From Pasteuria penetrans (GTDB taxonomy: Bacteria > Bacillota > Bacilli > Thermoactinomycetales > Thermoactinomycetaceae): DNA of 64,000 nucleotides. Positions 2,698 through 50,600 of the stretch are shown here, in pieces. The stretch covers positions 372,001 through 436,000 of the forward strand of contig NZ_UZAC03000001.1 of the NCBI RefSeq assembly GCF_900538055.1, given 5' to 3'. The stretch's first letter is position 1, and the number at the start of each line of letters is the position of its first letter. A program made the translations under genes and the position numbers. The notes under the pieces were generated by a model, which ran no database searches, was not told the DNA's origin, and was given only the letters and a program-made list of their open reading frames with translations.

Positions 2698-4119
2698 ATG
2701 AAAAACGAACAGAATATGAAAAACGAAGCCCCAACGATACTTTTTCAGAGATATCCCCTTTCCAAAATTGTTATTTTTTCCTACCTGCTTTCCCTATGTG
2801 TGATTATTGGAACAGTATTCCCTCCTGCCTCAGCAGCGATCGCAGGGACTGCCCCTGTAGCCAACTCTTCTGGTCAGGGTACCTCTGGGAATAAGATTTC
2901 ATTCTTCCAGAATCCATTTCAGAAGCGGCCCATAAGTTCAGCAGCGATCGCAGGGACTGCCCCTGTAGCCAACTCTTCTGGTCAGGGTACCTCTGGGAAT
3001 AAGATTTCATTCTTCCGGAATCCATTTCAGAAGCGGCCCATAAGTTCAGCAGCGATCGCAGGGACTGCCCCTGTAGCCAACTCTTCTGGTCAGGGTACCT
3101 CTGGGAATAAGATTTCATTCTTCCGGAATCCATTTCAGAAGCGGCCCATAAGTCAAGAAAAAATTAATAATATTAAAAATTTTACAAATTGTTTAGGTGA
3201 AAATTGCCGATTGATGAGGTATGAATTGGGAAATGCACGTGATTTTTCAAAAACAGGATTGGTAATTCATAATGAGGCTATAAAGATAGAAGGAAAAAAG
3301 GTTGGAGGCATGAAGGCATTCCTCCATCCCATAAGATTTATGAAGGATAAAATAAGAGAAAGGGATGATAGTTGGAAGAAGATGGGTCCCCATGTCGATC
3401 CAGCGACAAAGGAAACGGGGAAAATAAAAGAAAAATATGTACCCATGCTAGATGGGGTTTATAAAGACATTAGTGATCTTAAAGAACATCTGGATGGGAA
3501 TAAAATAAAAGAAAAAAAAATAAAAAATTCACTGAATAAAATCAACAAAAAAGGTTCGGAATTATTAAATATGGAAAATGAGATACAAGAAGTTCAAAAA
3601 AAATATTCTCCCTTAGTTGGACAAGGGCATTCATTGGATAGTAAACAGGATGGTTTCCTACAACGGAAGATTTGGAATCCCCTTCAGAAATGGTCCTACA
3701 CTGGGGACAGGGTACGGAATACAAGTCCTAGACAGGTAAAAAACCAGTTCCGTGTAGCAAACAATCACCTCGGGGAAGCGAGCAAAGCCGCAAAACAATT
3801 CAATGAAGACATTGACAAGTTGAGGGGCCTTCACAATGAACTCTTCGGGAGTGGAAAAAAATCAGCTTCCAAGCATTCCAACCGTTCTACTAATTCCCAC
3901 ATACAGAACAATTCCCCTACTGTGGAATCACCCCCCTCTTCATTCTCTTCCTATCCGGAAGAAAAAAATCCGTTCTCTGAAGTTATATCCGGGGATACCC
4001 GTATAGGAACGTCGGAGATATCCTCTTCATCTCCTATAAAAGAAAAGGATACAAAAAATAAAAAAAGAAATAAATGGAAAAATAACGATATTTTTATTCA
4101 AGACACGATGGGAGTTTGA
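2698..4119 (+). CDS. Secreted protein with three identical-type 36-residue N-terminal repeats, function unknown
   Basis: This 473-residue protein has a likely signal peptide (hydrophobic KIVIFSYLLSLCVIIGTVF, possible cleavage near PPASA). Three tandem 36-residue repeats start with SAAIAGTAPVA (residues 45-152). A lysine- and glutamate-rich, probably helical region covers about 155-380. The tail is rich in Ser, Asn and Pro and ends in a basic stretch (KKRNKWKNN). The start ATG 2698 follows AAAGGA by 11 bases. A second ATG lies 18 bp further in, because an 18-bp sequence containing the start is itself duplicated. I recognise no family. An exported surface or adhesion-type protein is possible. 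The A+T-rich helical region contrasts with the GC-richer repeats, suggesting that the repeats spread separately. Confidence 0.75.
   Translation: MKNEQNMKNEAPTILFQRYPLSKIVIFSYLLSLCVIIGTVFPPASAAIAGTAPVANSSGQGTSGNKISFFQNPFQKRPISSAAIAGTAPVANSSGQGTSGNKISFFRNPFQKRPISSAAIAGTAPVANSSGQGTSGNKISFFRNPFQKRPISQEKINNIKNFTNCLGENCRLMRYELGNARDFSKTGLVIHNEAIKIEGKKVGGMKAFLHPIRFMKDKIRERDDSWKKMGPHVDPATKETGKIKEKYVPMLDGVYKDISDLKEHLDGNKIKEKKIKNSLNKINKKGSELLNMENEIQEVQKKYSPLVGQGHSLDSKQDGFLQRKIWNPLQKWSYTGDRVRNTSPRQVKNQFRVANNHLGEASKAAKQFNEDIDKLRGLHNELFGSGKKSASKHSNRSTNSHIQNNSPTVESPPSSFSSYPEEKNPFSEVISGDTRIGTSEISSSSPIKEKDTKNKKRNKWKNNDIFIQDTMGV
2830..3153 (+). repeat. Three tandem copies of a 108-bp coding repeat
   Basis: The units start at 2830, 2938 and 3046. 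They differ visibly at only about one base (CCAG versus CCGG in the Q/R codon), so they duplicated recently or are kept alike by recombination. They encode the 36-residue repeats of the surrounding gene. Confidence 0.95.
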
Positions 4120-9016
<4,897 letters not shown>

Positions 9017-43820: not shown

Positions 43821-44972
43821 CTAAACTTCGGTCCTCACGGGAACCACCAATTGCATTGCGGTCTGTATACCTGGTACTTGGATACGGCAAGGCCTTTGCG
43901 GACCTGGTAACAACATCTCCACTTCATCCGCCCCGCTGAACGCCTCAAGGGAATCTACCAGATAAGTTGCATTGAATGCAAGTGTCATTGGTTCACCCTC
44001 CACCGTTGCTGGTAGGGACTCTGCAACACTTCCCACGCCCGCAGCAATCGCGGCCACGGAGATCCGATCATTCTCCACTACCAACTGAATCAAACGATCG
44101 GGGTGATCACGGCTAATGAGCGAAGCTCTCCCCACCGCACCAAGAAAATTAGCAAGCGGTAGACGAACACGAACAGGTGCCTCTTGTGGAATTACCTTAC
44201 TGATATCGGGATAAGCCCCCCCCAACAGACGCGTGGCAAACCACCATTCCCCTGTGGACACAACCCAATGGCCTTCCACTACCTGACAGGAAACCTCATC
44301 CGCATCATCCATAATTTTTAACAATTCATGAACGCTATGCCCGGGAATGACTATATCCTCGGGATGAACATTTTTTGGATTAGAAATCGGGGTTTGCCAC
44401 TTTGATAACCGAAAAGTATCAGTAGCTATGGCTGTGAGCAGATCAGCATGGCAACCAAGGCAAACCCCAGTCAACACACCTCGCGCCTCCGTGATAGAAG
44501 CTGCAAATACAGTATTCTTTAACATGGATTTCAGATCGGAAGCCTGCATAGAGAAACCTGTACTTGCAGCCGAGATAGCCAACCGGGGATATTCAAGGGG
44601 ATCAAAACCGTGCAATTGAAAATGAGATGATCCTATCCGAAAATCCACTTCAAAATTACCCATAACCTCGATGGAAACTTCCCCTTCGGGAATCTTACGC
44701 ATGATATCACTCAAAATCCGTCCCGGCAACACCGCTTGACCCTCTTGTTCCACAACAACTTGGCGGAGATTCTTTATGCTTTCAGGACTGTCCTGCATGG
44801 AACAGGCGGTACGAATTCTCACATCGGCATTGCTTCCAGTGAAATGAACCTGATCCTCAACAGCTTCTACCCAAATCCCCCCTAAGACGGGTAAAGGGGA
44901 GCGGGGCGTAATAGCTCGTGATACCAATTGAATAACCCGACGCAAAACTGCGCGGCCCATACGAATTTTCAC
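43821..44972 (-). CDS. dnaN: DNA polymerase III sliding clamp (beta subunit)
   Basis: The 383-residue clamp forms a ring dimer that holds polymerase on DNA. The N-terminus KIRMGRAVLRRVIQLVSRAI...LPVLGGI aligns with bacterial DnaN, and FTGSNADVRI, GRILSDIMRKIP and the C-terminal LVVPVRT end are present. GTG 44972 is preceded by AGGGGGG with eight bases between, which decides this start; the longer upstream frame has no homology. It lies just downstream of the oriC region in the dnaA direction. Confidence 0.97.
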   Translation of the reverse strand: MKIRMGRAVLRRVIQLVSRAITPRSPLPVLGGIWVEAVEDQVHFTGSNADVRIRTACSMQDSPESIKNLRQVVVEQEGQAVLPGRILSDIMRKIPEGEVSIEVMGNFEVDFRIGSSHFQLHGFDPLEYPRLAISAASTGFSMQASDLKSMLKNTVFAASITEARGVLTGVCLGCHADLLTAIATDTFRLSKWQTPISNPKNVHPEDIVIPGHSVHELLKIMDDADEVSCQVVEGHWVVSTGEWWFATRLLGGAYPDISKVIPQEAPVRVRLPLANFLGAVGRASLISRDHPDRLIQLVVENDRISVAAIAAGVGSVAESLPATVEGEPMTLAFNATYLVDSLEAFSGADEVEMLLPGPQRPCRIQVPGIQTAMQLVVPVRTEV

Positions 44973-45320
44973 ATTACAGGCCCCCCTGGGAAGATCATAC
45001 CAGTTGATCACCAAAATTCTTATTTCACCGATTATTGTAACGTTAACCCGCGATACATACCAGTCTACACGAAACCAACGCGAAAAACATCCTACGCATC
45101 CCATTTACAATTCCATCCCTTTTGGAGAATGGAACCCCGGTTCTTTTTCGTCTACGTGGAACATAAAGTGTCAGTTGAATCAGGATGAGCGTCCCCTCCG
45201 CACAGCAATATGCTTTATTGTAGCGGGTACGGGCTCGCTTGCATAGTCAGGATAACAGAAAAGATTTGCTGGGAATAGCTTTGCATTTTGAACATTCACT
45301 TCAGGATTCGGACTTGTCCC

Positions 45321-45334
45321 CGCGCGCGCGCGCG
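45321..45334. repeat. (CG)7 alternating tract at the origin
   Basis: Fourteen bases of pure CG alternation directly abut the A+T-rich candidate unwinding element. Such tracts can adopt Z-DNA under negative supercoiling. A role at the origin is inference. Confidence 0.8.
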
Positions 45335-45384
45335 ATTTTTTTAGTTCTTACTTCTTTATTTATTTACCGTCGTAGTAGTAGTAG
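45335..45384 (-). other. Candidate DNA unwinding element with DnaA-trio motif
   Basis: 45335-45367 is A+T rich (runs of T and TTTATTTATTTA). 45373-45384 is four TAG triplets, which read 3'-GAT-5' on the strand DnaA would load on, as in the DnaA-trio of Bacillus subtilis. A one-mismatch DnaA box (TGTTGATAA, 45399-45407) lies 14 bp away. The order DnaA boxes, trio, A+T-rich DNA, dnaN is the same as in Bacillus. Confidence 0.75.
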
Positions 45385-45451
45385 GGGGGCAATAAAATTG
45401 TTGATAACTCGGGAATACCCTGTATTACAAGGGTTTTGTAGTAATAAATCG

Positions 45452-47176
45452 TGTGGATAACTTGTGGATAACCTGTTAATAATCTGTGGATAACTTGTGG
45501 ATAACTGAAGGGGTAGGGTTGGCGTTGCCGCCCCTTTGTGGATAAGTCTGTGGATAACTTGTGGATAACTGAAGGGGTAGGGTTGGCGTTGCCGCCCCTT
45601 TGTGGATAAGTCTGTGGATAACTTGTGGATAACTGAAGGGATAGGGTTGGCGCCGCTGCCCCCCTGTGGATAAGTCTGTGGATAACTTGTGGATAACTGA
45701 AGGGATAGGGTTGGCGCCGCTGCCCCCCTGTGGATAAGTCTGTGGATAACTTGTGGATAACTGAAGGGATAGGGTTGGCGCCGCTGCCCCCTTGTGGATA
45801 AGTCTGTGGATAACTTGTGGATAACTGAAGGGATAGGGTTGGCGCCGCTGCCCCCTTGTGGATAAGTCTGTGGATAACTTGTGGATAACTGAAGGGATAG
45901 GGTTGGCGCCGCTGCCCCCTTGTGGATGAGTCTGTGGATAACTTGTGGATAACTGAAGGGATAGGGTTGGCGCTGCCGCCCCCTTGTGGATAAGTCTGTG
46001 GATAACTTGTGGATAACTGAAGGGGTAGGGCTGGCGCCGCTGCCCCCCTGTGGATAAGTCTGTGGATAACTTGTGGATAACTGAAGGGGTAAGGTTGGCG
46101 TTGCCGCCCCCCTGTGGATAAGTCTGTGGATAACTTGTGGATAACTGAAGGGATAGGGTTGGCGCTGCCGCCCTCCTGTGGATAACTTGTGGATAACTGA
46201 AGGGGTAGGGTTGGCGTTGCCGCCCTCTTGTGGATAAGTCTGTGGATAACTTGTGGATAACTGAAGGGGTAGGGTTGGCGCTGCCGCCCCCTTGTGGATA
46301 AGTCTGTGGATAACTTGTGGATAACTGAAGGGGTAGGGTTGGCGCTGCCGCCCCCTTGTGGATAAGTCTGTGGATAACTTGTGGATAACTGAAGGGATAG
46401 GGTTGGCGCTGCCGCCCTCCTGTGGATAAGTCTGTGGATAACTTGTGGATAACTGAAGGGGTAGGGCTGGCGCTGCCGCCCTCCTGTGGATGAGTCTGTG
46501 GATAACTTGTGGATAACTGAAGGGGTAGGGTTGGCGCTGCCGCCCCCTTGTGGATAAGTCTGTGGATAACTTGTGGATAACTGAAGGGGTAGGGTTGGCG
46601 CCGCTGCCCCCCTGTGGATAAGTCTGTGGATAACTGAAGGGATAGGGTTGGCGCCGCTGCCCCCTTGTGGATGAGTCTGTGGATAACTTGTGGATAACTG
46701 AAGGGATAGGGTTGGCGCCGCTGCCCCCCTGTGGATAAGTCTGTGGATAACTTGTGGATAACTGAAGGGATAGGGTTGGCGCCGCTGCCCCCCTGTGGAT
46801 GAGTCTGTGGATAACTGAAGGGATAGGGTTGGCGCCGCTGCCCCCCTGTGGATGAGTCTGTGGATAACTTGTGGATAACTGAAGGGATAGGGTTGGCGCC
46901 GCTGCCCCCTTGTGGATAAGTCTGTGGATAACTTGTGGATAACTGAAGGGATAGGGTTGGCGCTGCCGCCCACCTGTGGATAACTTGTGGATAACTGAAG
47001 GGGTAGGGTTGGCGCCGCTGCCCCCCTGTGAATAAGTCTGTGGATAACTTGTGGATAACTGAAGGGGTAGGGTTGGCGCCGCTGCCCCCCTGTGAATAAG
47101 TCTGTGGATAACTTGTGGATAACTGAAGGGGTAGGGTTGGCCGCTGCTGCCCCCTTTCGAATGAGTCTGTGGATAA
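45452..47176. repeat. oriC: oriC: 27-copy 64-bp satellite of DnaA boxes
   Basis: A unit of about 64 bp is repeated 27 times between dnaN and dnaA. Most units carry three copies of TGTGGATAA (the complement of the consensus box TTATCCACA), spaced 12-13 bp start to start. A G+C-rich spacer follows (ACTGAAGGGRTAGGGTTGG then a [12 protein letters not shown] type). A few units carry only two boxes, and some boxes are altered to TGTGGATGA or TGTGAATAA. In total there are roughly 70-80 box-like sites. Spacer variants (CGTTGCCG, CGCCGCTG, CGCTGCCG) occur in runs, as expected from unequal exchange. Confidence 0.95.
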
Positions 47177-47287
47177 GTAGGTTGGTAACCCATGGGCAAG
47201 TTGTTCCTTGTATCGTGCTCGGGGTTAGTTTTCACATTGCATATTTCCTGTGCTGAGGACAAAAAAAAAATACCCGCCGTGGGGTAT

Positions 47288-48889
47288 CTAGTTGTTGTGT
47301 TGTGTGATTTTCTGCGAAAAACTTTGTATGATGCGTTGGAGCTGGCTATCCCCTTGGAGCATTTTGGAAATTTTTTCATGAGCGTGGACAACAGTGGCGT
47401 GGTTTCTGCCACCGAAGGCATGGCCAATTTGTAGCAAGGAATGGTCAGTCAGCTCCCTTGCCAGGTACATGGCGATTTGACGGGGAACGCTGATGGGCTT
47501 AGCACGTGATTTCCCGGTGAGATCGTTTATGTTGAGGCTGTAGTAGTTACAGACTGTTTTCTGGATTGTCGATAAGCTCAGGGATGATCTTGAGGGTTCG
47601 TTGTAGCATTTGCTCAAATGTTTATTTACTGACTGGATTGTCACGGGTGTTCCTTCAAGATGGGATCGGGCTACGACGCTGATCCAAACCCCTTCTAGTT
47701 CACGGATGTTGTTGTCAACTCGCTCGGCAATGTATTCAAGAATGTTATCTTCCACTGAGACCTTTTCTATCTCTGCCTTACGGCGGAGGATGGCCAATCG
47801 TGTTTCGTAATCGGGGGGTTCGATATCTACCAGCAAACCAGAGGCAAAACGCGAGCGGAGCCTGGCTTCCAGGGCGGAAATGGCATGGGGACGCCGGTCC
47901 GTAGAGAGAACAATTTGTTTGTTGGCACTGTGGAGGGCATTGAAGGTATGGAAGAATTCCTCCTGTGTTTGTTCCTTCCGTCCTAGAAACTGGACATCAT
48001 CAACCAGTAGGATATCAACATTGCGATAACGGTCCCGAAACTCGCTAGTACGTTCCTTTTGCATTAGGGTGGAAATGAAATGATTGGTGAAGTCCTCTGA
48101 CGATATGTAAACTATTCTATACTGTGCTTCCTCTTTACTCAGTATGTGTTGCGCCAAGGCGTGCATGAGATGGGTTTTACCCAGACCCACACCACCACAG
48201 AGTACTAGAGGATTATAACCACCTGCAGGCGACTCAGCTACTTTACAGGTGGCAGCATAGGCAAGTTCGTTTGTTTTTCCTACGATAAAGGTGGAGAAGT
48301 TGTAATTGGGATTGAATTGGAATGACTGGTCTTTCCCTAGAAAATTTCCTCCCCTGTTTCCCGGTATGTTTTTCTGGCCACTCGTACTTGGGGGGGGTTG
48401 TTCCGAAATCCCCTCCCTTCTCCTAACAGTTGGATCTTCTTTTCGGGGTAAAGGGGTATTTTTGTTTTCCCCTGTCCAGTCTGTTCCGGCTCTCTCCAGG
48501 TAGGTAGGCGCAATTCCCCCGGCAGAAAAGTCGTCCAATAGCTGAGTTTTTGTTACCCCCTCCTTTGGTAAGGGGTGGATTAGGGTACCCTGCAGAGTCT
48601 TCCCCGTCGAACCCGCTACGGGAGGAAATTCAACGAGTATCTTGCAATGACTAGAGGTAACGAACTGGAAGGTTTTTTCTGCTATGGCAATCCCTTCTTC
48701 GATTTGTCGTTTGTCATAATGGAGGGATTCCTGGGGCATTTTCATTAAGATTGTATCATTGTGCCGCCCGGTGATATTGGATTTTTGAAAAAGAATCCAA
48801 ATTGTATCAGGAATGTGTTTTTTCACCCGTTTCAGTGTACGGTTCCACAGTTCCTGAAGATCCCAGTCCTTATACCTATTGGGGAGCAC
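47288..48889 (-). CDS. dnaA: Chromosomal replication initiator DnaA
   Basis: The protein binds DnaA boxes and opens oriC. Domain I is about residues 1-90. Domain II is a long, variable, Pro/Gly/Thr-rich linker (about 92-190). Domain III begins at FNPNYNFSTFIVGKTNELAY, with Walker A GGVGLGKT (232-239) and Walker B ILLVDDVQF. Domain IV ends with the DNA-binding signature FGGRNHATVVHAHEKI. At 533 residues it is about 85 longer than Bacillus subtilis DnaA, mostly from domain II. GTG 48889 has AAGGAGGG six bases upstream. The DnaA-box array starts about 110 bp after its stop codon. Confidence 0.97.
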   Translation of the reverse strand: MLPNRYKDWDLQELWNRTLKRVKKHIPDTIWILFQKSNITGRHNDTILMKMPQESLHYDKRQIEEGIAIAEKTFQFVTSSHCKILVEFPPVAGSTGKTLQGTLIHPLPKEGVTKTQLLDDFSAGGIAPTYLERAGTDWTGENKNTPLPRKEDPTVRRREGISEQPPPSTSGQKNIPGNRGGNFLGKDQSFQFNPNYNFSTFIVGKTNELAYAATCKVAESPAGGYNPLVLCGGVGLGKTHLMHALAQHILSKEEAQYRIVYISSEDFTNHFISTLMQKERTSEFRDRYRNVDILLVDDVQFLGRKEQTQEEFFHTFNALHSANKQIVLSTDRRPHAISALEARLRSRFASGLLVDIEPPDYETRLAILRRKAEIEKVSVEDNILEYIAERVDNNIRELEGVWISVVARSHLEGTPVTIQSVNKHLSKCYNEPSRSSLSLSTIQKTVCNYYSLNINDLTGKSRAKPISVPRQIAMYLARELTDHSLLQIGHAFGGRNHATVVHAHEKISKMLQGDSQLQRIIQSFSQKITQHNN

Positions 48890-49649
48890 TTTACACCCTC
48901 CTTATACGAACTTGGGAAATGAATATTTTAATAAAAATTGATTATAATAATCTTGCACATTATCATCCTATCCATGATTCCCCCATTCCTTGTTGGATGG
49001 GGAAGGAATTCAGACTATCTTTCTGCAGAACCGGGCTATCTCACGGGATTAGTGGGGGTTTCGCCGTATTTGTGTTTTTTCCCGATCGTCCATTCCGCAC
49101 AAACCTCCATTGGAAAGGGACGACCTGTCGCTTTTGCAAGAATAGCGTATCAAAAAGTTTCTCCAGACTCAATTCACCCCCCGAGGGAACAAAAAAGATG
49201 GAAAACTACAATGTTCCATCCTAGGATGTGTATACAAGGGTGTTGCAAATGGTAGTGGTTCGGCTCCTGGTGGAAATCCATTGGGAATGATCCAGCAAAT
49301 TTTGTCGGTATATCCCAGATTGGCTTTTCCACAGGGCTACGGATTATGAAGCCCATGCGAGGGAGTTGGTATTCCCGTAGTTTTCCGTTTTTCTACTGTG
49401 GTAACTATTGTGGAGAAAATGGTTTTCTGTGATTTATTTTGGTGGTTGTTGCGGATGACAGGCGAGCAATGGATGATAACGATCACAGTTCCCTTTGTAG
49501 AAGGAGCTTAGGGATATTGGCCTTATGGTAGTGGGGTTTTGGTAATGATTACCTTTCTGCCATCGTCCCTCGATCAACCAGGTATGCGGCAGTAGAGGGG
49601 ATTTTCTACGTTCCAGGTACGCCTTTGGTGGAAATCCCCCTCTATTGGA
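48890..49649. other. Region upstream of dnaA without genes
   Basis: This 760-bp interval should hold the dnaA promoter. The first 100 bp on the dnaA side are A+T rich (TATAAT is present on the minus strand near 48945). One imperfect DnaA box (TTTTCCACA near 49326) is seen, in contrast to the massive array on the other side of dnaA. No gene is supported. Confidence 0.45.
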
Positions 49650-50600
49650 CTAAAGTCGTTTGGCAAGGATCTCGGATAGGGCATTGTGGAGTTTGGGAAA
49701 ACGAAAACGGTAATTGCGGTTCTGGAGTACTTTAGGGAGAATGGTTCCCCCTTTTAGGAGTACCCCGGCCATTTCACCCAATACTAATTGCATAGCTATA
49801 GCAGGCGTAGGCACAACGGACGGTCGTTGCATGATTTTTGCTAGTTTTTCAGCAAAAACAAGTTGTGGGCAACTATCGGGAGATACGATATTTACGGGTC
49901 CCTGGATATCTTTGTGTCGAATGAGGAACTCCACAATATCGGGGATCTCTGATAGGGACCACCAATTTATGATTTGTTTTCCAGTTCCCATGCGTCCCCC
50001 CAAACCGCAACGGAAGAGAGGAAGCATTCTCCGTAAGGCACCACCCTTTGTACTTAAAATGACGCCAAATCGTAACCAGACCGTGCGTATTCCCGCTTCC
50101 ATAGCTGGCTTCGTGGCCGTCTCCCAGTCCCTTACCACCCGGGAGAGAAAATCATCATTGTCCCCGGCGGGAGGTGGGGAGGATTCGGTATAGATGTCCG
50201 TGTTTTTCCCCGTGCCGTAATATCCAATAGCGGAAGCGGACAACCATACGGAGGGCGGTCGTTGTAGTTTGCATAATGTATTGGCTAATAGGTTTGTTCC
50301 TTTCCAACGGCTCCGATGGATTTTTTCTTTCTGAGCTGTTGTCCAGCGGTGTGCTCCGATGTTTTCCCCTGCCAAATGAATCAGTACGTCGCATCCTTCC
50401 AAATCCTCCGGATTTAGCTGCTCTTTTTCGGGATCCCAGGGAATCCCATATTCCCTTCCCTTTGAACAGCGTACGATGGGAATCATCGTATGACCATGGT
50501 TTTTGCCGTGGGACATCAATTCAGTACCTACCAGGCCTGTAGATCCGGTGATTGCGATTCGTAAGGGTTTCTGTGAATCCTTCCCCCTATTTATAATCAT
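49650..50600 (-). CDS. TIGR01777-type NAD(P)-dependent epimerase family protein (YfhF-like)
   Basis: The 316-residue protein has a Rossmann fold with ITGSTGLVGTEL near the N-terminus (GxxGxxG), DVLIHLAGENIGAHRWT, SASAIGYYG (YxxxK-type region changed, as usual in this family) and the C-terminal DUF1731 domain (LLKGGTILPKVLQNRNYRFRFP). Homologues are SDR39U1 and YfhF; the substrate is unknown. ATG 50600 is preceded by GAGGGAGGAAG. It lies between dnaA and rpmH, pointing with dnaA; this spot is usually empty in Bacillota, so the gene may have been inserted. Confidence 0.85.
   Translation of the reverse strand: MIINRGKDSQKPLRIAITGSTGLVGTELMSHGKNHGHTMIPIVRCSKGREYGIPWDPEKEQLNPEDLEGCDVLIHLAGENIGAHRWTTAQKEKIHRSRWKGTNLLANTLCKLQRPPSVWLSASAIGYYGTGKNTDIYTESSPPPAGDNDDFLSRVVRDWETATKPAMEAGIRTVWLRFGVILSTKGGALRRMLPLFRCGLGGRMGTGKQIINWWSLSEIPDIVEFLIRHKDIQGPVNIVSPDSCPQLVFAEKLAKIMQRPSVVPTPAIAMQLVLGEMAGVLLKGGTILPKVLQNRNYRFRFPKLHNALSEILAKRL

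What the first reader, a model, noticed from the sequence alone, without database searches (positions are those of the whole stretch)
45321..45407. DnaA-trio, unwinding element and (CG)7 Z-DNA-prone tract side by side
Four TAG triplets (45373-45384) in DnaA-trio orientation sit beside an A+T-rich stretch that ends in 14 bp of CG alternation, with a one-mismatch DnaA box 14 bp from the trio. The first two match the basal unwinding system of Bacillus. The CG tract could act as a supercoil sink or boundary.
Basis: partly seen in the sequence, partly recalled or inferred. Interest (0 to 1): 0.7.

Follow-up and report, generated by a model that had tools for sequence, protein, structure and literature searches.

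The report
Unwinding site of a remodelled replication origin
This is the place where a spore-forming bacterium, probably the nematode parasite Pasteuria penetrans, is predicted to open its chromosome for copying; the opening motif is a standard one, but the origin around it is unusual, with a huge array of initiator binding sites, an altered initiator protein and a CG repeat that no examined relative has.

Summary
TAG x4, the A+T-rich stretch and the box form the basal unwinding system (BUS) of the chromosomal origin, in the dnaA-dnaN spacer at the GC-skew switch. Box plus trios occurs once in the genome; relatives carry the element (97 of 112 spacers, 5 of 2240 shuffles). That part is ordinary. 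(CG)7 is not chance (1.3e-4 expected per genome), but 118 of 118 relative loci have CG runs of 5 bases at most. A supercoiling model makes it a Z-DNA sink only in small domains; it may equally be a neutral microsatellite, a bubble edge or an antisense terminator. The larger finding is the context: 72 exact DnaA boxes in a 1.7-kb satellite; no exact box upstream of dnaA, where 78 of 78 relatives have some; a decayed second BUS box; and the most diverged DnaA of 81 rows, with three of six base-contact residues and the arginine mapped to sensor 2 replaced. Nothing was tested biochemically, and no same-genus genome was available.

The parts
47288..48889 (-). dnaA, replication initiator; one copy in the genome; strongly diverged
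   Evidence: TIGR00362 466.7 bits, cut-off 343.9; single match; differs at 47 of 183 columns conserved in at least 97% of 80 relatives
45452..47176 (-). 64-bp satellite region with 72 exact TTATCCACA boxes, all in one orientation, spaced mostly 11, 12 and 41 bp
   Evidence: 27.2 copies at 45479-47176 by TRF; boxes; all 43 close box pairs of the genome lie here
45399..45407 (-). BUS DnaA box TTATCAACA (one mismatch), counterpart of B. subtilis box 6
   Evidence: the finder's box in L101 (Litchfieldia) is the same word
45385..45398 (.). 14-nt box-trio spacer ending in six G/C pairs; the second BUS box has decayed here (ATTTTATTG, best 9-mer 4 mismatches)
   Evidence: in 15 of the 21 family loci where a BUS was found, a box with 0-1 mismatch lies in this spacer; in the other 6 the finder had anchored on the second box itself
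45373..45384 (+). four DnaA-trios (3'-GAT-5' read away from the box); the opposite strand carries three TACT words, a DnaD-recognition-element-like pattern
   Evidence: trio and DRE definitions from PMC8287927 and PMC10201434 (passages)
45335..45372 (.). A+T-rich DNA unwinding element; modelled melting 45334-45368
45321..45334 (.). (CG)7 tract: Z-DNA-prone, GC-rich edge of the modelled bubble; with the T7 beside it also an intrinsic-terminator-like site on the + strand
43821..44972 (-). dnaN; likely GTG start at 44972 behind AGGGGGG (the longest ORF begins at 45104)
   Evidence: TIGR00663; matches begin at window residue 40-45 in 79 of 119 rows, the window itself included; sequence

Best explanation
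45321-45407 is the unwinding half of the chromosomal replication origin, a BUS of the Bacillus type. DnaA binds the box at 45399-45407, fed by DnaA on the adjacent satellite (inferred). It polymerises onto the trio strand at 45384-45373 and stretches it; the A+T-rich 45335-45372 opens; DnaD/DnaB load helicase on the other strand (inferred from homology). The (CG)7 tract marks the dnaN-side edge of the bubble. It is a repeat not seen in any examined relative, and its most likely effect, if it has one, is passive: a hard-to-melt boundary that may flip to Z-DNA under high local supercoiling. Shown: anatomy, occurrence in relatives, uniqueness, modelled melting position. Inferred: every protein step and any role of the CG tract (my odds: neutral 0.5, passive edge 0.2, Z sink 0.15, terminator 0.15). 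The confidence below is for the BUS part.
For: Between dnaA and dnaN, where GC skew goes from about -0.2 to +0.24. Box + spacer + trios unique in the genome. An automatic finder puts a BUS in 100 of 112 distinct relative spacers, with spacing 12-13 nt in 79 of those 100; at score 4 or more it is 97 of 112 against 5 of 2240 dinucleotide shuffles. A stress-melting model of 2.5 kb without Z opens, above 10% probability, only 45334-45368 at sigma -0.055 and -0.06. DnaA residues for ssDNA binding (I190, K222 of B. subtilis) are kept, and a DnaD-domain protein and a DnaB-like loader are encoded. Three TACT words lie opposite the trios.
Against: The box has a mismatch, the second BUS box is at the limit of recognition (4 mismatches), the spacer is 14 nt (1 of the 100 distinct relatives with a BUS), and only four trios are clean. 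DnaA has lost contacts that relatives keep, so its site preference could have shifted. In the model the window's 2.5 kb is harder to melt than 11 of 12 chosen relatives without Z, and than all 12 with Z allowed (5-kb domain; the place of melting in relatives was not looked at). With Z allowed, opening of the element is delayed. The finder accepts 19% of shuffles when no score is asked for and picked a wrong-looking site in L012/L032. No biochemical data exist.
Confidence: 0.85

Rival explanations
1. The (CG)7 tract is a functional Z-DNA supercoil sink: it flips first and holds the unwinding element closed until DnaA or local supercoiling exceeds a threshold.
For: Model: Z half-forms at sigma -0.034 to -0.040; in a 2.5-kb domain it moves half-melting from -0.0535 to -0.069. 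Only CG run above four repeats in 2.52 Mb, and it sits next to the element.
Against: Not present in 118 of 118 relative loci. In 20-40 kb domains the shift is only 0.0015-0.0025. Energy parameters are recalled, not fitted; whether (CG)7 flips at cellular supercoiling was not tested. A search for Z-DNA + replication origin + DnaA found 10 papers, 9 listed; none is about a bacterial origin with a Z tract as far as title and start of abstract show.
Confidence: 0.15
2. The (CG)7 tract is a neutral or nearly neutral microsatellite grown by slippage in a fast-evolving origin that also grew a 64-bp satellite.
For: Absent from all 118 relative loci; the same spacer carries a large tandem expansion; DnaA and RecF here are fast-evolving.
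Against: Single such tract in the genome and at a striking place; but that is one post hoc coincidence.
Confidence: 0.5
3. The tract is the stem of an intrinsic terminator on the + strand (CG hairpin then ATTTTTTTAG) that stops antisense transcription from entering the unwinding site.
For: Pattern scan finds it, one of 2 terminator-like sites in 44900-45480; hairpin -8.6 kcal/mol with a T7 tail.
Against: Shuffles of the region give 0.7 terminator-like sites on average, and no promoter-like site was found on either strand; dinucleotide shuffles fold as well (z about 0); dnaN, recF, gyrB and gyrA are on the other strand; no such tract in relatives.
Confidence: 0.15

Closest known systems
Basal unwinding system of Bacillus subtilis oriC (incC: boxes 6/7, spacer, DnaA-trios, A+T-rich element)
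   Same: Order, orientation, position between dnaA and dnaN, box-trio distance, 3'-GAT-5' trios, A+T-rich element, encoded DnaD/DnaB
   Different: Second box decayed and one mismatch in the first; (CG)7 at the far end; DnaA base-contact and sensor-2 residues changed
Bipartite Bacillus-type oriC (box clusters on both sides of dnaA)
   Same: dnaA/dnaN context; a distal group of boxes beside the unwinding boxes
   Different: No exact box in 800 nt upstream of the dnaA frame; the downstream group is expanded to 72 exact boxes, against 0-9 in the spacers of 118 relative loci
Origins of the same family (Thermoactinomycetaceae relatives)
   Same: CACTTATCCACA-n-TATCCACAG-CCCC-TACTACTACT then A+T-rich DNA (read)
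   Different: Many relatives end the A+T stretch in ATATATATG; the window ends it in (CG)7

Membership tests
Basal unwinding system (criteria of PMC8287927, passages read) | DnaA box with at most 2 mismatches | tested here: met
   TTATCAACA, 1 mismatch
Basal unwinding system | spacer of 0-16 bp between box and trios | tested here: met
   14 nt
Basal unwinding system | at least three trios with central A, 3'-GAT-5' favoured | tested here: met
   four GAT trios
Basal unwinding system | tandem second DnaA box (usual, not required; up to 4 mismatches) | tested here: inconclusive
   best 9-mer has 4 mismatches, at the limit
Basal unwinding system | DnaA-dependent strand opening at the site | not testable with these tools
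   needs protein; a DnaA-free melting model places opening at 45334-45368
DnaD recognition element (PMC10201434, passages read) | two or more TnnT on the strand opposite the trios; dnaD encoded | tested here: met
   three TACT; DnaD-domain protein; binding not tested
Bipartite Bacillus-type oriC | DnaA-box cluster upstream of dnaA | tested here: not met
   0 exact and 2 one-mismatch boxes in 800 nt; 78 of 78 relatives with full flank have 1-8 exact
Z-DNA-forming element | long alternating CG tract able to flip at modest supercoiling | tested here: inconclusive
   tract present; the model flips it at sigma -0.034 to -0.040; no experiment
Intrinsic terminator | GC-rich hairpin then T run | tested here: met
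   + strand pattern only, 2 sites against 0.7 in shuffles; hairpin no better than shuffles; no transcript data

The most novel reading that the evidence does not exclude
The origin and its initiator have been rebuilt together. A DnaA with weakened box contacts (P423L, D433N, T435A in E. coli numbering) and no sensor-2 arginine (mapped by motif) is kept working by avidity: 72 exact boxes, 79 with up to one mismatch, all facing one way, raise local DnaA beside a single imperfect BUS box and replace the lost upstream half of the origin, while (CG)7 acts as a topological brake on spontaneous opening.
Probability: 0.25. Interest if true: 0.8.

Novelty: new variant of a known kind. Interest (0 to 1): 0.5.

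Why it matters
How much of a bacterial origin can be lost or amplified while the trio module stays is an open question. This origin keeps the trios but lacks exact boxes upstream of dnaA and a clear second BUS box, has its distal boxes amplified to a satellite, and runs on a DnaA with altered DNA-contact and ATP-sensing residues. It is a natural test of the proposal that distal boxes work by raising local DnaA (PMC6669920, section 7). The CG tract gives a testable case of a Z-prone element touching an unwinding site.

Tried and rejected
Coding reading of the array: minus-strand ORFs of 537 and 687 aa run through it, but they are frames through a 64-bp repeat and were set aside without further test. 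RNA family in 44800-47400: none at gathering threshold. Chance origin of the trios or the CG tract: rejected by expectation and, for the box-trio site, by shuffles. CG tract as a conserved origin part: not seen in 118 relative loci. Order scan for TACT...(CG)5: 42 genomes, hits in 4 including this one; the others were judged not origin-like from the matched letters alone, without testing their surroundings, and the read-backwards control also hits. Class scan of 398 genomes with a looser pattern: 110 matched, the read-backwards control matches widely too, and the listing was truncated, so it cannot exclude every genome. Six of its listed candidates were fetched as 4-kb stretches and none matched dnaA or dnaN. 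Conserved alternation: many relatives end the A+T stretch in TATATATATG where the window has CG alternation, but positions vary and no test was made, so it stays a remark. Supercoil-sink model: its conclusion depends on domain size; energy parameters are recalled literature values, and at most one Z run was allowed. A first DnaA alignment script found no relatives because of a wrong motif and was redone. The BUS finder missed 13 of 118 relative loci (some cut short by an upstream dnaN match), and in 14 of the 105 found it anchored on a box 1-4 nt from the trios (and in L023 on the second box too), so its second-box column is not usable for those rows. Distinct spacers were told apart by their first 200 nt only. 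L111 was dropped because dnaN lay beyond the fetched stretch; L001 is the window's own genome. L054 was left out of the alignment and of the counts because it did not match the motif used; one further locus was left out of the 78 for a short flank.

Changed on re-checking: the count of family loci with a second box (now 15 + 6 of 21), the shuffle control for the finder (new), the melting comparison with 12 relatives, and the split of odds for the CG tract, which had not added up.

Full report
WHERE IT IS. The window lies at 372001-436000 of contig 1 of a 2,519,642-base genome in four contigs. dnaA, dnaN, recF, gyrB and gyrA run leftward on the minus strand and rnpA rightward (gyrA and gyrB named from their sequence, not by a profile search). 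GC skew goes from about -0.2 left of 45 kb to about +0.24 right of it, the usual mark of a replication origin. A DnaA search names Bacilli, with several genera that I recall as Thermoactinomycetaceae at or near the top; the whole-genome tool shows family members but none of the same genus. I infer Pasteuria penetrans: PMC13233619 (passages read) quotes 2,407 genes of 694 bp making 66.33% of its genome, which gives 2.52 Mb, and 46% G+C, with Thermoactinomyces as nearest kin. I did not measure the G+C of the whole genome. The species name is an inference; no call gives it.

THE OBSERVATION. Every stated element is present at the stated place. Read in the direction of dnaA the sequence is TTATCAACA-ATTTTATTGCCCCC-CTACTACTACTA-CGACGGTAAATAAATAAAGAAGTAAGAACTAAAAAAAT-(CG)7. 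TAG x4 is expected 0.07 times per genome and (CG)7 1.3e-4 times. Box plus trios occurs once in the genome. CG runs of six repeats occur at one place only, here, and the other five (CG)4 places do not extend.

RELATIVES. I extracted the dnaA-dnaN spacer from 118 relative loci, 112 of them distinct. An automatic finder (box with at most 2 mismatches, 0-16 nt, at least three NTN) found a BUS in 105 of 118, or 100 of 112 distinct. Dinucleotide shuffles pass this loose test in 421 of 2240 cases, but at score 4 or more it is 97 of 112 spacers against 5 of 2240 shuffles, and at the window's own score, 7, it is 74 of 112 against 0 of 2240. Among the 100, the box-trio distance is 12 nt in 60, 13 in 19 and 14 in 1; 13 are at 4 nt, where the finder took the second box. 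The family pattern is ACTTATCCACA-n-TATCCACAG-CCC-CTACTACTA. In the window the first box has one mismatch and the second has become ATTTTATTG, whose best 9-mer has four mismatches; in 15 of 21 family loci with a BUS the second box has 0-1 mismatch and in the other 6 it served as the finder's anchor. The longest CG/GC run in any of the 118 relative spacers is 5 bases, against 14 here. Spacers are 59-634 nt against 2,184 here (the short ones are cut by the way I placed dnaN), with 0-9 exact boxes against 72. A scan of the 42 genomes of the order for TACT...(CG)5 gave hits in 4 genomes; the three besides this one do not look like origins from the matched letters, which is all I examined.

WHAT THE MOTIF IS. 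By the published criteria of the basal unwinding system (PMC8287927, passages) this is a BUS: box with at most 2 mismatches, spacer of at most 16 bp, at least three trios. The same passages report that in B. subtilis only the upstream box is required for strand separation in vitro, while the downstream one lowers the DnaA concentration needed, so decay of the second box is tolerable. The EMBO Journal paper (PMC6669920, sections 5 and 7 read) shows that in vivo a distal group of boxes is also needed and that DnaA overexpression rescues its loss, and proposes that distal boxes raise local DnaA by looping. It also shows that box 6 alone is not sufficient in vivo, which fits a need for the array here. 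Three TACT words opposite the trios fit the DnaD recognition element (PMC10201434, passages), and the genome encodes a DnaD-domain protein and a DnaB-like loader.

THE CG TRACT. I wrote a statistical-mechanical model of melting and Z-formation in a 2.5-kb stretch with recalled energy parameters. Without Z the only region above 10% opening is 45334-45368 at sigma -0.055 and -0.06, ending at the CG tract. With Z allowed, the tract flips first. Half-melting then shifts from -0.0535 to -0.069 for a 2.5-kb domain, but only from -0.047 to -0.0515 at 10 kb and from -0.045 to -0.0465 at 40 kb; Z half-formation is at -0.034 to -0.040. So a sink works only in a small closed domain. In the same model (5-kb domain) 12 chosen relatives half-melt at -0.0425 to -0.051 without Z and -0.043 to -0.054 with it, against -0.0495 and -0.0575 for the window: the window is among the hardest to open, and the hardest once Z is allowed. 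That fits a brake, but it also counts against easy opening here. The tract with the neighbouring T7 also scores as a + strand terminator, but the region's shuffles give 0.7 such sites on average against 2 found, the hairpin is no better than shuffles, and no promoter-like site was found on either strand of 44900-45480. With no examined relative carrying it, I rank neutral microsatellite first (0.5), then passive bubble edge (0.2), Z sink and terminator (0.15 each).

THE LARGER SURPRISE. First, a 64-bp satellite of 27 copies carries 72 exact boxes, all facing the same way, with spacings mostly 11, 12 and 41 bp. A search for two close boxes followed by a third 25-45 nt on, in 398 genomes of the class, gives 44 matches here and at most 3 in any other; 28 of 398, this one included, have any. 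Second, the cluster upstream of dnaA is gone: 0 exact and 2 one-mismatch boxes in 800 nt upstream of the open frame, against 1-8 exact and 4-15 with up to one mismatch in 78 of 78 relatives whose 800 nt were available (of 80 loci looked at). Third, DnaA is an outlier: it differs at 47 of 183 columns conserved in the other rows, the next worst row at 12 of 180. The neighbours are less extreme: GyrB 13 of 260 (third of 80 rows), DnaN 6 of 48 (third of 81), RecF 18 of 88 (second of 81). So part of this is general fast evolution, but DnaA stands out. Of six base-contact residues listed in PMC7561715 (one passage), P423, D433 and T435 are L, N and A here. P and D are invariant in 118 of 118 relatives in one alignment, from which L054 had been left out because it did not match the motif used to collect rows; in the other alignment 1 of 80 rows (PLLKIG) has L at the P position. 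The T is T in 111 and S in 6 of 119 loci examined by motif, 2 not matched. The arginine that I map to B. subtilis R321, reported essential (passage), is S here and R in 118 of 118; it is the sensor-2 position by recall. Residues I190 and K222 for ssDNA are kept, so trio binding looks intact while box binding and ATP sensing look altered.

MECHANISM. Most likely DnaA loaded densely on the satellite supplies the single imperfect BUS box, polymerises on the trios and opens 45335-45372; the CG tract limits the bubble on the dnaN side. The anatomy is shown; the protein steps are inferred by homology with B. subtilis. A contrary possibility is that the satellite titrates DnaA and delays initiation, which would suit a slow obligate parasite; the data do not separate the two.

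NOVELTY. The motif is a known kind. The combination with a box satellite, loss of the upstream half and a derived DnaA is, to my knowledge, undescribed. Full-text searches for Pasteuria with DnaA (3 papers), DnaA-box arrays (3 papers), oriC in Thermoactinomyces (none) and Pasteuria penetrans with replication origin (1 paper) listed nothing on it by title and start of abstract; the hit is a reference-list line. That library holds open-licence papers only.

LIMITS. No same-genus genome is held; the array length rests on one assembly; the model is rough; DnaA function was not tested.

Noticed in passing
window 45452-47176: 64-bp satellite with 72 exact same-facing DnaA boxes between dnaA and the BUS; no other of 398 class genomes has more than 3 matches to the box-triplet pattern, against 44 here.
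   Followed up: partly
window 47288-48889: DnaA has three of six base-contact residues replaced and the arginine mapped to sensor 2 changed to serine, and is far more diverged than GyrB from the same window.
   Followed up: partly
window 48902-49701: The DnaA-box cluster upstream of dnaA found in 78 of 78 relatives is missing; only two one-mismatch boxes remain.
   Followed up: yes
window 5822-8635: 2.8-kb array of repeats built on ACAGGTGCT, which would read Thr-Gly-Ala and so look collagen-like in one frame (not translated by a call); local G+C up to 64%.
   Followed up: no
window 2830-3153: Three 99% matching 108-bp tandem copies, a multiple of three bases long.
   Followed up: no
L058, L096: Records titled Arthrobacter and Pseudomonas carry dnaA-dnaN loci like those of Bacilli; probably misnamed or contaminated assemblies.
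   Followed up: no
window 45321-45335 versus relatives: Many relatives end the A+T-rich stretch in alternating TATATATATG; the window has alternating CG at the end of its stretch.
   Followed up: partly
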